Origin: Lichenibacterium ramalinae
GTDB taxonomy: Bacteria > Pseudomonadota > Alphaproteobacteria > Rhizobiales > Beijerinckiaceae
DNA length: 64,000 nucleotides
Assembly: GCF_004137085.1 (NCBI RefSeq)
Contig: NZ_QYBC01000013.1
Coordinates: 62,001-126,000, forward strand
Direction of reading: 5' to 3'
Position numbers and translations under genes: made by a program. Below are positions 48,044 through 63,618 of the stretch, piece by piece (the stretch's first letter is position 1; every line of letters begins with the position of its first letter). The notes beneath the pieces were generated by a model. The model had not been told where the DNA came from and searched no databases. It saw only the letters and a program-made list of their open reading frames with translations.

Positions 48044-48140
48044 GGAAGAGAAACGCTCCCCGGTGGGACGTCCGGACTTCAAATCCGGGAAGGGCCGCGA
48101 GCCGGTCCTTGGTGGGTTCGACCCCCACTCTCTTCCGCCA
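48044..48140 (+). tRNA. selC: Selenocysteine tRNA, anticodon UCA
   Basis: The 97-nt sequence has an extended acceptor stem (GGAAGAGA with TCTCTTCC), the anticodon arm CCGGA-CTTCAAA-TCCGG with anticodon TCA, and a long variable arm (about AAGGGCCGCGAGCCGGTCC). The T arm GTGGGTTCGACCCCCAC follows, and GCCA ends the gene with an encoded CCA. An 8-bp acceptor, UCA anticodon and long extra arm are diagnostic of tRNA-Sec. No selA or selB and no obvious selenoprotein gene is in the window; formate dehydrogenase is the usual client. Confidence 0.95.
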
Positions 48141-59926: not shown

Positions 59927-60596
59927 TCGGCGTCCGGGCGTAGAGGTGGATCATGTCCTGGCTGAGCAGGCCGACGCAGCCGCTGGTGATGCCCTTGCCG
60001 ATCGTGTCCGGGTCGCTGCTGGCGTAGATCGTGTAGAGCGTATAGGCGCCGTTCTGGTAGAGGTGCAGGGTGCGGGCGCCGAGCGGGTTGTCGAGCCCCC
60101 CCGGCATGCCGTGGGCATAGGCGGCGGCCTCGGGCTGGCGCTGGATCATCTCCTTGGGCGGCGTCCACGTCGCCCATTCCGACTTGCGGCCGACATAGGC
60201 GTCGCCGTGCCACAGGAAGCCGTTGCGGCCGACATTGGCGCCGTAGCGGGTCGCCGAGCCCGCGCCCTCGATGCGGTAGACGTAATAGTTGCCGGGGTCG
60301 ACCACGATGGTGCCGGGCGCTTCGGGCGATTCGTACCGCACCGTCCGGCGGAAGAACTTCGGGTCCAGCTTGGCGATGTTCACCGCCGGGATCGGGAACT
60401 TCTCGTCCGGGATCGGGCCATAGGCCTTGGCGGCCTCGGCGAGCATCAGGGCGTCGGAGGTCGCGCAGCCGGCGAGCCCGAGCGCGCCGAACCCCGCGGC
60501 CGAGCCGACCAGGAACGACCGGCGGCTGAGGAAGCCCGCCCCGCGCGCGGGCGGGACGATCCCGCCGGCGACGCCATCCCCACCGTGCCTGGTCAT
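59895..60596 (-). CDS. L,D-transpeptidase (YkuD family), Tat/lipoprotein
   Basis: A 233-residue cell-wall enzyme. The N terminus has FLSRRSFLVGSAAGFGALGLAGC: a twin-arginine motif and a lipobox (LAGC), so export and lipidation are likely. The YkuD domain ends with HLYQNG and the catalytic GITSGCVGLLSQD (S-x-G-C with the nucleophile cysteine). It cross-links peptidoglycan or attaches lipoproteins. The ATG at 60596 is chosen; an ATG 24 bp upstream is possible. Its 3' end overlaps the cyclase gene by 32 bp. Confidence 0.9.
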   Translation of the reverse strand: MTRHGGDGVAGGIVPPARGAGFLSRRSFLVGSAAGFGALGLAGCATSDALMLAEAAKAYGPIPDEKFPIPAVNIAKLDPKFFRRTVRYESPEAPGTIVVDPGNYYVYRIEGAGSATRYGANVGRNGFLWHGDAYVGRKSEWATWTPPKEMIQRQPEAAAYAHGMPGGLDNPLGARTLHLYQNGAYTLYTIYASSDPDTIGKGITSGCVGLLSQDMIHLYARTPIKTKVVVLPA

Positions 60597-60722
60597 GTCC
60601 CGACGCGCCCCATGTCCCACGGCCGGGTGCGACGACGATCCACCGATCCCCCGACGCGCGGCCTGCCCGGTCGAGATAGCCGGTGGCGGGCTCGACTGAC
60701 AAGGGCATACGGCACCCCTGCC

Positions 60723-61325
60723 TCACGTCTCCGCCCGCCACCGCGCCAGCGGCAGCGGACGCGCCGCGGCGCTCATGCCCCAGTGTTCGCACAGCCGGTG
60801 CAGCCCCTCGCGCAGCCGCTCCAGCGCCAGGGCCTCGGCGGTGCGGGCATGGGCGCTGTCGGCGACGAGGTCGCGCAGGGCCGCGACGGGGCGGGCGGCC
60901 AGCACCACACCCGCCACATAGGGCATCAGGCGCACCCCGACGGCCGCTTCGGCCCGGCGCAGGGCGTCCCGGTGGCGGCGGGCGGCGTCGCCGGGGGTGG
61001 GGTCGGCGCTGCCGCCGTCGACGTGGGGACGGGCGAGGTCGACGGCCGACAGGGCGTCGAGGCCGGCGCGATGCCAGTGGGCGCGCAGACGGTCGCCGGC
61101 GTGCCACAGCGTCTCGTTGGCGGCGATGTCGTGGCGGTCGAGCAGGTTGCGGGCCCGCAAGACGTCGAAGGGGTCGGAGATGCGGCGCAGGCCGCCCGCC
61201 GCCACCGGCGCCTCGCCGTCCTGCCGGGCGTGGCGCAGGCGCTCGGGCGTGGCGTCCTGGTGGCCGGGCGCCACACGCCCGCCGGCCAGCGACACGGCCT
61301 CAACCTTGCGGCGCGGCACCGTCAC
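60723..61325 (-). CDS. DUF6456-family protein
   Basis: A 200-residue protein with a helical, Arg-rich core: LLDRHDIAANETLWHAGDRLRAHWHRAGL, RAEAAVGVRLMPYVAGVVLA (adjoining), and LERLREGLHRLCEHWG. I recall this as the DUF6456 type found beside phage-like regulators in Hyphomicrobiales. Function is unknown. The start is GTG 61325, overlapping the previous gene's stop as GTGA, so it is the third gene of a tightly coupled operon. Confidence 0.72.
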   Translation of the reverse strand: MTVPRRKVEAVSLAGGRVAPGHQDATPERLRHARQDGEAPVAAGGLRRISDPFDVLRARNLLDRHDIAANETLWHAGDRLRAHWHRAGLDALSAVDLARPHVDGGSADPTPGDAARRHRDALRRAEAAVGVRLMPYVAGVVLAARPVAALRDLVADSAHARTAEALALERLREGLHRLCEHWGMSAAARPLPLARWRAET

Positions 61326-61750
61326 GCCCTCCCGAAGACGGAGGCGAGCGTCGGGCCGCCGCGCGCCGGGCCCGGGCCGCCGGGCGGCCGCTCGACGCCG
61401 AGCCGGCGCAACGCCGCCCGGCCCTCCGCCAGGCTCGACACGACGGCGTGGGGGATGCGGAGGGCGATGCAGCGCTCGGCGAGGGCGCAGGCCGCCGGCC
61501 CCGGGCGCTCGGGGTCGCGCTCGATGCGCAGCAGCGCCACATGGCCGCGCGGCAGCAGCAGCGCCAGGGTGCGCCCGCTGGCGTCGGCAGGCTCAGCCCC
61601 GCCAGGCGACAGCGGCCAAACCTCCGGCAGGCGCAGCGCCAGGAAGCCGCGCAGACCCTCCTCCACCCGGGCGGGGTCGGGCCGGCGGCGCTCGTCGAGG
61701 CCAAAGGCGCCCCGCCGGCGCGGCGCGCGCAGCACGAGCGGCGGGCTCAT
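61322..61750 (-). CDS. Hypothetical protein, possible VRR-NUC nuclease
   Basis: A 142-residue protein. The middle reads LALLLPRGHVALLRIERDPE and ends with AAGRAALRRLG-like ALRRLGVERPPG, which resembles the strand-helix pattern of VRR-NUC holliday-junction-type nucleases, but the key catalytic residues are not clearly present. The start ATG 61750 overlaps the upstream stop (ATGA) and its own stop overlaps DUF6456. The nuclease idea is weak; unknown function is the safe call. Confidence 0.6.
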   Translation of the reverse strand: MSPPLVLRAPRRRGAFGLDERRRPDPARVEEGLRGFLALRLPEVWPLSPGGAEPADASGRTLALLLPRGHVALLRIERDPERPGPAACALAERCIALRIPHAVVSSLAEGRAALRRLGVERPPGGPGPARGGPTLASVFGRA

Positions 61751-61995
61751 GCCCGGCTCCCCGGCCCGGCGTGGCGCGACAGCCCGGCGTGCTGCGGGCA
61801 ATAGCTGGCGCCGGCCCGCCGCGCCGCGCCGCAGAAGGCGAAACCCGCGCTCCGCGGCTCCCCCAGGGGCCAGCGGCAGGCGCGGGGCGCCAGCCCGACG
61901 ACGGCCGTCGCGGCGGGCGGGAACCAGGGATAAGCGGGCGCGACCGGGCGCTCCGCGGCGAAAGCCGACGTCGACGGGACCATGATGTCCAACAT
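61747..61995 (-). CDS. Mini-GcrA: C-terminal domain of the GcrA cell-cycle regulator
   Basis: An 82-residue protein from ATG 61995 (an ATG at 61983 is also possible; neither has a clear ribosome site). Its second half, APRACRWPLGEPRSAGFAFC followed by GAARRAGASYCPQHAG, matches the C terminus of GcrA, the part that contacts sigma-70. The N-terminal helix-turn-helix that reads methylated GANTC sites is missing; the first 35 residues are Pro/Ala-rich instead. It is the first gene of the operon facing the XRE/S24 repressor across two palindromes. Confidence 0.7.
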   Translation of the reverse strand: MLDIMVPSTSAFAAERPVAPAYPWFPPAATAVVGLAPRACRWPLGEPRSAGFAFCGAARRAGASYCPQHAGLSRHAGPGSRA

Positions 61996-62051
61996 TGTCA
62001 GGGGTTGCGGGGCCGGAGGGTCTGGACGACTCGCCCCCGACCCGGCTAATA

Positions 62052-62066
62052 TGCCCATATTGGGCA
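62052..62066. promoter_or_regulatory. Operator O1 of the XRE/S24 module
   Basis: TGCCCATATTGGGCA is a palindrome with 6-bp arms and a 3-nt centre, located 56 bp before the mini-GcrA start and 49 bp before the repressor start. It pairs with the second copy at 62084; the centres are 32 bp apart, three helical turns, so both sites face the same side of the helix. Confidence 0.82.
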
Positions 62067-62083
62067 CGTCCGTCAAGCGTTTG

Positions 62084-62098
62084 TGCCCATTTTGGGCA
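62084..62098. promoter_or_regulatory. Operator O2 of the XRE/S24 module
   Basis: TGCCCATTTTGGGCA has the same 6-bp arms as O1 and differs only in the centre. It ends 17 bp before the GTG start of the repressor, so binding here would block its own promoter or initiation. Autoregulation is the natural reading. Confidence 0.82.
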
Positions 62099-62115
62099 TG
62101 TTCCTGGGGATCGCC

Positions 62116-62685
62116 GTGGCCAACAACCTGCGACAGCTGAGGGAAGGCCGCGGCTGGACGCAGGACGAGGCCGCCGCCGCCCTGGGAACCACCCGCAACC
62201 AATATGCCAAGCTCGAGGGCGGCAGCCGGCGCCTGTCGGACAAGTGGATCAAGCTCGCCGGCGAGGCCTACGGGGTGGACCCCGGCGACGTGGTGACGGA
62301 GCGGGCCGGCAGCGTGCCGATCGCCGGCTACGTGGGGGCCGGGACCGAGATGCATTTCTACGCCGAAACCCAGGGCCCGCTCGACGAGGCGCCAGCGCCC
62401 GAGGACGGCACGCCCGAAACGGTGGCGGCGGAGGTACGGGGCGAGAGCCTGGGCCCGCTGTTCAACGGCTGGCGGGTGTATTTCGACGACCGGCGCGAGC
62501 CCGTGACGGACGACCTCGTGGGCCGGCTCTGCGTGGTGGGGCTGGCGGACGGGCGTGTGCTGGTGAAACAGCTGCTGCGCGGCCGCATGGAGGGCCGCTT
62601 CGCCCTCCACGGCCAGTTCGGCGAGCCGGTGCTCGACGCCGACGTGCTCTGGGCCGCCAAGGTCAAGAGCATGATGCCGGGGTGA
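62116..62685 (+). CDS. XRE-family S24/LexA-like repressor
   Basis: A 189-residue two-domain repressor. Residues 3-55 are a helix-turn-helix (LRQLREGRGWTQDEAAAALG then TTRNQYAKLEGGSRRL). The C-terminal S24 domain has a cleavage-site-like Ala70-Gly71 (VPIAGYVGAG), catalytic-type Ser111 (GESLGP) and Lys151 (VLVKQLL). It may self-cleave when triggered, as CI and LexA do. I start it at GTG 62116, which has GGGGA 5 nt upstream; ATG 62098 and GTG 62083 overlap the operator and are less likely. It probably represses itself and the divergent mini-GcrA operon. Confidence 0.88.
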   Translation: MANNLRQLREGRGWTQDEAAAALGTTRNQYAKLEGGSRRLSDKWIKLAGEAYGVDPGDVVTERAGSVPIAGYVGAGTEMHFYAETQGPLDEAPAPEDGTPETVAAEVRGESLGPLFNGWRVYFDDRREPVTDDLVGRLCVVGLADGRVLVKQLLRGRMEGRFALHGQFGEPVLDADVLWAAKVKSMMPG

Positions 62686-62840
62686 CGTCGCGCCGGGCGC
62701 GGACAGGCAGAGCCGCGGCGGGACGCGAAGGGGCGGAGCCGCGGCGACGGCCCCGCGCGTTCGTGACCGCCCGGGCCCGGCTACCGGCGCGCCGCGGGAT
62801 CGCGTAAGGTCGTGGATCGTCCCGCCCCGGTGCCCATCCC

Positions 62841-63032
62841 ATGTCCGCCGCCACCGCCAACGCTTTCATCCTGGTCGCGATCGGGCTCGTCTTCGCCGTG
62901 TTGCTGGCCGGACTCGTCAACATGGTCCGGGGCGGCAGTTCCAACACGTCCCAGCGCCTCATGCGCTGGCGCGTCGGGCTCCAGTTCGTGGCCATCCTGG
63001 TGGTCATGACGGTGCTGTACTTCAGGGGGTGA
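62841..63032 (+). CDS. Twin-transmembrane HIG1-like protein
   Basis: A 63-residue protein with two helices (FILVAIGLVFAVLLAGLVNM and VGLQFVAILVVMTVLYF) and a short basic loop with SQRLMRWRVGLQF, the HIG1/hypoxia-induced-type pattern. Such small proteins are common just upstream of cob(I)alamin adenosyltransferase genes in alphaproteobacteria; a role in respiratory complexes is inferred from the family. The gap to the next gene is 4 bp, so they are cotranscribed. Confidence 0.82.
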   Translation: MSAATANAFILVAIGLVFAVLLAGLVNMVRGGSSNTSQRLMRWRVGLQFVAILVVMTVLYFRG

Positions 63033-63036
63033 TGCC

Positions 63037-63618
63037 GTGGTGATCCTCAATCGCATCTACACGCGCACCGGCGACGACGGGTCGACCGCGCTCGGCTCCG
63101 GCGAGCGGCGGCGCAAGTCGGATGCCCGCGTCGCCGCCTACGGCACGGTCGACGAGTGCAACGCCGCCATCGGCCTCGCCCGGCTCTCGGCCGCGACGGA
63201 ATCGCCCGAGCTCGACGCCATGCTGGGCCGCATCCAGAACGACCTGTTCGACCTCGGCGCCGACCTCGCGACCCCGCCGGCCGAAGCCGAGGCCGAGGGG
63301 GGCCGGCTGCGCGTCGTCCAGAGCCAGGTGGACCGGCTGGAGCGCGAGATCGACGCGCTGAACGCCGACCTCGCGCCGCTGCGCAGCTTCGTGCTCCCCG
63401 GCGGCACGCCGGCCGCCGCCGCGCTCCACCTCGCCCGCACCATATGCCGCCGCGCCGAGCGCCTCATGGTGGACCTCAAGGTCGGCCAGGGGGAGACGGT
63501 CGGCGACCCCGCCATCGCCTACGCCAACCGCCTGTCCGACTTCCTCTTCGTGGCGTCGCGCCACTGCAACCACCTGCGCGACGGCGACGTGCTCTGGGTG
63601 CCGGGCCGGGACCGGTAG
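63037..63618 (+). CDS. Cob(I)yrinic acid a,c-diamide adenosyltransferase (PduO type)
   Basis: A 193-residue PduO-family enzyme that adds the adenosyl group to reduced corrinoids. Signatures are RIYTRTGDDGSTALGSGERR, KSDARVAAYGTVDECNAAIG, DLFDLGADLATPP and RLSDFLFVASRHCNHLRDGD (the last with the adenosyl/cobalamin site). The start is GTG 63037. It completes the pathway to adenosylcobalamin with the cluster at 20-37 kb, although CobO-type enzymes elsewhere are possible. Confidence 0.94.
   Translation: MVILNRIYTRTGDDGSTALGSGERRRKSDARVAAYGTVDECNAAIGLARLSAATESPELDAMLGRIQNDLFDLGADLATPPAEAEAEGGRLRVVQSQVDRLEREIDALNADLAPLRSFVLPGGTPAAAALHLARTICRRAERLMVDLKVGQGETVGDPAIAYANRLSDFLFVASRHCNHLRDGDVLWVPGRDR

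What the first reader, a model, noticed from the sequence alone, without database searches (positions are those of the whole stretch)
60723..62685. XRE/S24 switch controlling a mini-GcrA operon
Seen: two near-identical 15-bp palindromes (TGCCCAtatTGGGCA and TGCCCAtttTGGGCA) 32 bp apart between a CI/LexA-like repressor with cleavage residues and an operon of three genes with 4-bp overlaps. The first gene has only the sigma-70-contacting C terminus of GcrA and no DNA-binding half. Known: GcrA is a cell-cycle activator at methylated promoters. Inferred: a stress-cleavable repressor releases a small GcrA-mimic that could titrate sigma-70 or compete with GcrA, coupling stress to the cell cycle. This may be an undescribed, possibly domesticated prophage, switch.
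Basis: partly seen in the sequence, partly recalled or inferred. Interest (0 to 1): 0.82.

Follow-up and report, generated by a model that had tools for sequence, protein, structure and literature searches.

The report
Chromosomal phage-type switch without phage genes
A bacterium of the genus Lichenibacterium keeps, on its chromosome and with no recognised phage genes beside it, a phage-style on/off switch in which a repressor that looks able to cut itself faces an operon for half of the cell-cycle protein GcrA, a degenerate nuclease and a relative of the proteins that switch on gene transfer agents.

Summary
In detail: an XRE/S24 repressor (62116-62685) faces a three-gene operon (61983-60723) with 4-bp overlaps, across two 15-bp palindromes. 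Palindrome 1 lies inside the only sigma-70-type promoter match in the region. The exact pattern occurs only twice in the 5.8-Mb genome, both here.

Gene 3 is a diverged DUF6456 protein, the family of GafA/GafZ, which switch on gene transfer agents. In relatives it lies beside an S24 repressor next to terminase and portal genes, or between prophage primase and terminase genes. Gene 2 is a degenerate VRR-NUC. Gene 1 is the sigma-interacting half of GcrA.

All four genes occur in 6 of 6 genus genomes, in three chromosomal settings, with dN/dS below 1 in the pairs measured; both operators are clear in 4 of 6. A Mesorhizobium phage has a related repressor facing an operon with a GcrA half. The own genome shows no HK97 portal or capsid.

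Best reading: a domesticated CI-type switch over a GafZ-like regulator plus a sigma-docking peptide, acting in trans on unknown targets. Coupling of stress to the cell cycle by sigma titration is neither shown nor excluded.

The parts
62116..62685 (+). XRE/S24 (CI/LexA-like) repressor, 189 aa from GTG 62116; longer frames from ATG 62098 or GTG 62083 exist
   Evidence: the start at 62116 is favoured because MANNL is shared by the genus relatives and the phage has MGNNL
62084..62098 (.). Operator 2, TGCCCATTTTGGGCA, ends 17 bases before the repressor start
62052..62066 (.). Operator 1, TGCCCATATTGGGCA, inside the operon promoter
62048..62076 (-). Predicted sigma-70-type promoter TTGACG-17-CATATT of the operon
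   Evidence: 1 found in 60500-63100, shuffle mean 0.0
61747..61983 (-). Gene 1: mini-GcrA, 78 aa, sigma-interacting domain only (an in-frame ATG 12 bases upstream also exists)
61322..61750 (-). Gene 2: degenerate VRR-NUC protein, 142 aa
60723..61325 (-). Gene 3: diverged DUF6456 (GafA/GafZ family) protein, 200 aa

Best explanation
A domesticated phage/GTA-type switch. In the off state a CI-like repressor occupies operator 1, inside the operon promoter, and operator 2, next to its own start, so it silences the operon and limits itself (inferred from position). When RecA or another signal triggers S24 self-cleavage at Ala75-Gly76 (inferred from conserved residues), the operon is transcribed. The DUF6456 protein then acts, like GafZ or a phage late regulator, on RNA polymerase at target genes elsewhere, and the GcrA half docks on sigma-70 as its partner, the role that GafY, another sigma-70-contacting protein, plays in gafYZ operons. 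The nuclease relic is probably structural or vestigial. Shown: gene content, families, operator and promoter geometry, conservation, purifying selection. Inferred: repressor binding, cleavage, sigma docking, antitermination. Unknown: the targets.
For: Operator 1 lies in the single predicted promoter. Both operators are recognisable in 4 of 6 genus genomes, 31-33 bp apart by my count; L032 and L033 carry paired arm changes that keep the palindrome. The four-gene layout is in 6 of 6 genus genomes, in three settings; of the flanking proteins scanned (8 of the window, 10 of L032, L034 and L035) none matched a phage structural, packaging or integration family. dN/dS is below 1 for all four genes in the pairs measured. 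Gene 3 is DUF6456-related (relatives). In the three g33 loci read an S24 repressor is divergent from the DUF6456 gene, and in L047 terminase and portal genes follow it. In L050 a DUF6456 relative lies between primase and terminase genes. In 5 g27 genomes a related repressor, a small gene and a gene 3 relative form a cassette. Mesorhizobium phage vB_MseS-P1 has a 48% identical repressor facing an operon with a 106-aa GcrA-half protein. Papers, passages seen: RogA represses gafYZ (PMC9632790); GafY contacts RpoD and GafZ is an antiterminator (PMC11150451).
Against: No target is known, and the own genome has no HK97 capsid or portal match. Gene 3 itself matches no Pfam family, and its model has no significant fold match. 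The g33 repressor shares architecture but no significant BLASTP similarity with this one (E 0.079). None of 12 other loci with related repressors had a GcrA half within 4 kb on the divergent strand by motif search. The mini-GcrA lacks the basic tail of host GcrA and has the highest dN/dS (0.44-0.63). No DnaA-like GafY was recognised. L035 has one intact operator and L036 only degenerate ones. The S24 match is below cut-off.
Confidence: 0.55

Rival explanations
1. Prophage remnant kept mainly for the repressor, which gives immunity to related incoming phages; the operon persists as a by-product and does little.
For: Related repressors sit in phages and viral contigs and in several prophage-like loci (read by eye). 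The repressor is the best conserved gene (dN/dS 0.08-0.28), and gene 2 has lost the usual catalytic residues.
Against: All three operon genes are open in 6 of 6 genus genomes with dN/dS below 1, and the operon promoter and operators are kept in several of them.
Confidence: 0.22
2. One reading: the mini-GcrA is the effector. It titrates sigma-70 or competes with host GcrA and so slows the cell cycle under stress.
For: Its domain matches the sigma-interacting domain of GcrA, and host GcrA is full length in the same genome.
Against: It shares the operon with a conserved DUF6456 regulator and is the fastest-evolving gene; it lacks the basic tail. Nothing here shows sigma binding or a link to the cell cycle.
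Confidence: 0.12
3. Regulator of a gene transfer agent: the cassette replaced the lost gafYZ and controls remaining GTA genes, such as the tail-tip genes on contig C28.
For: Canonical DUF6456 is missing in the genus, while GTA_TIM is in 4 of 6 genomes and the own genome keeps baseplate-hub, NlpC/P60 and GTA_TIM genes. Across 149 genomes gene 3 relatives and strong DUF6456 tend to exclude each other (5 both, 94 DUF6456 only, 19 relative only, 31 neither; p 7e-7, not corrected for phylogeny). In g33 the DUF6456 relative lies about 14-18 kb from GTA_TIM.
Against: The cassette persists in G013 and G086, which show no GTA_TIM. The own genome has no HK97 capsid or portal match.
Confidence: 0.11

Closest known systems
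RogA-gafYZ control of the Caulobacter gene transfer agent
   Same: XRE plus S24-like repressor over an operon with a GafZ/GafA-family protein; a first product from a sigma-70-contacting family (GafY there, a GcrA half here); the activator operon stands apart from the main particle cluster
   Different: Here the S24 residues are conserved, while the authors say RogA lacks key ones (PMC9632790, passages); a GcrA half and a nuclease relic instead of DnaA-like GafY; no HK97 head match in the genome; repressor adjacent and divergent. Direct homology to RogA was not tested.
Immunity region of Mesorhizobium phage vB_MseS-P1
   Same: Related repressor (48.4% identity over 99%) divergent from an operon that includes a GcrA-half protein
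   Different: Annotated repressor C and CII-type genes and many other phage genes there; no DUF6456 relative in the 10.5 kb searched; linked phage genes absent here
GcrA cell-cycle regulator (PF07750)
   Same: Sigma-interacting domain
   Different: No DNA-binding half and no basic C-terminal tail
GcrA homologues of phiCbK-like phages and GcrA genes annotated in phiLM21-like prophages (PMC3556154, PMC12429752; passages)
   Same: GcrA relatives carried by phages
   Different: The passages describe no sigma-interacting half alone and no operon with DUF6456; the domain content of the phiLM21 proteins was not checked

Membership tests
RogA-gafYZ type GTA control | XRE plus S24-like repressor facing the activator operon | tested here: met
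   (architecture and promoter position; binding not tested)
RogA-gafYZ type GTA control | DUF6456 (GafZ/GafA C-terminal) protein in the operon | tested here: met
   profile comparison; gene 3 itself gives no Pfam match
RogA-gafYZ type GTA control | DnaA-like GafY encoded before GafZ | tested here: not met
   genes 1 and 2 are GcrA- and VRR-NUC-related, with no DnaA family match
RogA-gafYZ type GTA control | GTA head-tail cluster in the genome | tested here: not met
   no HK97 capsid or portal match in the own draft genome; three tail-tip genes found
RogA repressor | sequence homology to Caulobacter RogA | not tested
   no RogA sequence was fetched
Temperate phage immunity region | CI-like repressor divergent from an operon across operators | tested here: met
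Temperate phage immunity region | linked integration, packaging or structural phage genes | tested here: not met
   18 flanking proteins scanned: 8 of the window, 10 of L032, L034 and L035; other flanks read by eye
S24 self-cleaving repressor | Ser-Lys dyad and Ala-Gly site (motif recalled) | tested here: met
   S111, K151 and A75-G76 invariant in 12 of 12 aligned; PF00717 match is below cut-off
S24 self-cleaving repressor | RecA-stimulated cleavage | not testable with these tools
   needs biochemistry
GcrA | sigma-interacting domain | tested here: met
GcrA | N-terminal DNA-binding domain | tested here: not met
   78 aa, match only to positions 98-148 of 155
VRR-NUC nuclease | VRR-NUC fold | tested here: met
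   model of gene 2 finds 4qbn first (probability 0.99, E 0.036); L034 relative over the Pfam cut-off
VRR-NUC nuclease | catalytic PD-ExK-Q residues (motif recalled) | tested here: not met
   lost in window, L032 and L033; PD kept and the ExK part altered in L034-L036 (read by eye)

The most novel reading that the evidence does not exclude
A sigma-adaptor swap: a lone GcrA sigma-interacting domain has taken the place of GafY as the sigma-70-docking partner of a GafZ-type antiterminator, and a lineage without the matching particles keeps this pair under a self-cleavable repressor as a private stress regulon or a phage-triggered response.
Probability: 0.2. Interest if true: 0.75.

Novelty: new variant of a known kind. 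Interest (0 to 1): 0.52.

Why it matters
It links two subjects: GcrA as a sigma-70 cofactor, and DUF6456 proteins as activators of gene transfer agents. It points to a phage/GTA-type control module that is kept on the chromosome apart from particle genes, and suggests that the sigma-binding half of GcrA is used as a separate part, also in phages. The whole switch is 2 kb, so both ideas can be tested directly.

Tried and rejected
A plain GTA regulator: ranked low because the cassette is in two genus genomes without GTA_TIM and the own genome has no HK97 capsid or portal match. A single fixed site: the HIG1-cobalamin gene pair is in 6 of 6 genus genomes but the cassette is directly upstream only in the own one. 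A phage with the same operon: P0003 and P0001 had no match in the phage collection; in viral contigs P0003 and the L036 gene 2 had none, P0001 one weak match, P0004 six, P0005 one. Those scans find close relatives only. The GcrA half as a general partner of this repressor family: not supported (0 of 12 loci). Fold search of gene 3: nothing significant. The g33 repressor as a close homologue: not supported. Start of the repressor at ATG 62098: set aside on the alignment, not excluded.

Rows dropped before counts: A1 holds 18 of the 27 places. A2 holds 14 of the 30 loci fetched (those on the + strand). A3 holds 12 repressors, while one search found 35 genomes and five phage records. In one search, 7 of the 106 genomes with DUF6456 matches were not counted as strong (best E above 1e-10). 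dN/dS is a simple NG86 estimate on three pairs of the window/L032/L033 group and one further pair, L035/L036, whose dS (1.4-1.7) is near saturation; starts of gene 1 in that pair were guessed. Gene calls come from my own rough caller.

Full report
Setting. The window lies in an unnamed draft genome of 5.8 Mb in 76 contigs. A same-genus genome, G086, has a contig of the same length (188,951) as the L. minor RmlP026 record that carries the same cassette, so the genus is taken to be Lichenibacterium.

Observation. Two exact palindromes, 62052-62066 and 62084-62098, lie between a repressor gene and a divergent three-gene operon. The exact pattern occurs nowhere else in this genome; 28 places match with up to one mismatch, against 7 for the reversed control. 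In the window two-mismatch matches are no more than chance (5 against 3.66). The operon genes overlap by ATGA and GTGA.

Operator geometry. The only sigma-70-type promoter match in 60500-63100 is TTGACG-17-CATATT on the minus strand, 62076 to 62048 (shuffle mean 0.0). Operator 1 fills its spacer; operator 2 ends 17 bases before the favoured repressor start. In L032, L033 and L034 two sites recur 31-33 bp apart (counted by eye), about three helical turns. L032 has TGCCCTATTAGGGCA and L033 TGCCCGTAACGGGCA: both arms changed, symmetry kept; their second sites are less perfect. L035 has one intact site and L036 only degenerate ones. So both operators are clear in 4 of 6 species.

Gene 1. The 78-aa protein matches only the sigma-interacting part of GcrA (PF07750 positions 98-148 of 155, E 9.5e-14) and the GcrA chain of 5yix (E 2.4e-10). 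A review puts the DNA-binding domain at residues 1-45 and the sigma-interacting domain at 108-173 (PMC7403470, passages). Host GcrA is full length on C65; the small protein lacks its basic C-terminal tail, so sigma binding is plausible, not assured.

Gene 2. The window protein matched no Pfam family. Of four relatives scanned, L034 reaches VRR_NUC over the cut-off (2.8e-5), L035 weakly (0.042), L036 and L032 not. The predicted model of the window protein (pLDDT 74.3) finds 4qbn, a VRR_NUC domain, first (probability 0.99, E 0.036). The usual catalytic residues (recalled) are lost or altered.

Gene 3. It matches phrog_21451 (3.5e-8) and no Pfam family. A profile of 18 relatives aligns to 14 canonical DUF6456 sequences with probability 97.5%, E 5.3e-12, over 145 columns. 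Single relatives match PF20057 from 3.3e-8 (L043, over the cut-off) to 4.5e-4 (L050); L032, L045, L047 and L050 are below the cut-off, and L046 did not match. BLASTP hits of GafA are annotated as DUF6456 (PMC9638019, passages; also PMC9765227, passages). In Caulobacter GafZ is presented as an antiterminator and GafY as contacting sigma-70 (PMC11150451, passages), and RogA represses gafYZ (PMC9632790, passages). The authors say RogA lacks key cleavage residues.

Where relatives of gene 3 live. In the three g33 loci read (L045, L047, L048) the gene is divergent from an S24 repressor. In L047 that repressor is followed by terminase and portal genes; L045 and L048 were read by eye for these. GTA_TIM lies about 14-18 kb away in four g33 genomes. 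That repressor is not significantly similar to the window's by BLASTP (E 0.079), so the parallel is one of layout. In L050 the relative stands between a primase gene and the terminase genes, with small genes between, where phages often keep a late regulator (recalled). In five g27 genomes a repressor 42-46% identical to this one, a small unknown gene and the gene 3 relative form a cassette; the flanks of L041 show no recognised phage genes by eye.

Conservation in the genus. P0003 matches 24 of 149 family genomes, among them 6 of 6 of the genus. All six have the four genes in the same layout. Three settings are seen: the window, L032 and L033 share NAD synthase and heptosyltransferase genes (about 7 kb from the cassette in the window), L035 and L036 are syntenic on both sides, and L034 stands alone beside MinC and a MinD/ParA-type gene. 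Of 8 window flank proteins and 10 flank proteins of L032, L034 and L035, none matched a phage structural, packaging or integration family; PHROGs matches among the ten were an oxidoreductase, the MinD-type gene, an esterase, and one weak unknown in L034 (phrog_1365, 1.9e-4). dN/dS: repressor 0.08-0.28, gene 3 0.18-0.42, gene 2 0.22-0.57, gene 1 0.44-0.63.

Repressor. Ser111, Lys151 and Gly74-Ala75-Gly76 are invariant in 12 of 12 aligned relatives, the phage one included, while the HTH half differs between the genus and g27. The closest phage relative, in Mesorhizobium phage vB_MseS-P1, is 48.4% identical and faces an operon with a 106-aa protein annotated as GcrA that holds only the sigma-interacting motif. 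A viral contig with a 60% relative of that protein has a weakly similar HTH gene (28% over 61 aa) on the other strand 1.6 kb away. Against: 0 of 12 other loci with related repressors had a GcrA half within 4 kb.

GTA question. Strong DUF6456 (E below 1e-10) is in 99 of 149 genomes and in none of the six genus genomes; the one weak genus hit is gene 3 itself in G086. GTA_TIM is in 4 of 6, HK97 capsid in 2 of 6, portal in 3 of 6; the own genome has neither capsid nor portal match. It keeps baseplate-hub, NlpC/P60 and GTA_TIM genes on C28, downstream of an ornithine cyclodeaminase-type gene. So the switch is not tied to a complete particle.

Literature. GcrA with VRR-NUC: no paper. GcrA with truncated, prophage and repressor: no paper. 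DUF6456: two papers, both on GTAs. GcrA with prophage: 27 papers, 20 listed, four seen in passages; phage GcrA homologues are known (PMC3556154), and GcrA is annotated in phiLM21-like prophages (PMC12429752, a table passage). A search with GcrA, phage-encoded and sigma70 gave 159 papers, 20 listed. Most subscription papers are not held, so absence from print is not established.

Verdict. Anatomy and phage/GTA ancestry are well supported. Repressor binding, cleavage, sigma docking and antitermination are inferred. Targets are unknown.

Noticed in passing
Own genome C28, about 146-152 kb (L084 16039-20000, L085 1-1877): Open baseplate-hub, NlpC/P60 and GTA_TIM genes of an RcGTA-like tail tip in a genome without HK97 capsid or portal matches.
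   Followed up: partly
63037-63618 and own genome C13:131421-131999: Two cobalamin adenosyltransferase genes, 80% identical; the other five genus genomes gave one match each.
   Followed up: no
48044-48140: ARAGORN reports a selenocysteine tRNA gene.
   Followed up: no
L114 283-591 and L115 644-952: In two g4 genomes a repressor relative matched only in its HTH part has, on the divergent side, a small gene that looks to me like a GcrA DNA-binding half alone (read by eye).
   Followed up: no
L034 6453-8014: In G111 the cassette lies next to MinC (PF03775, 2.8e-26) and a MinD/ParA-type gene.
   Followed up: partly
L037, L038, L040, L041, L042, between repressor and gene 3 relative: The g27 cassettes carry another small protein, ending C-[STV]-S-P-x-x-L-C-A-E-[LF], where the genus has the GcrA half and gene 2; the one scanned (L038) had no Pfam match.
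   Followed up: partly
L039 6160-6693: A second gene 3 relative of G095 lies among genes that look phage-like to me (read by eye).
   Followed up: no
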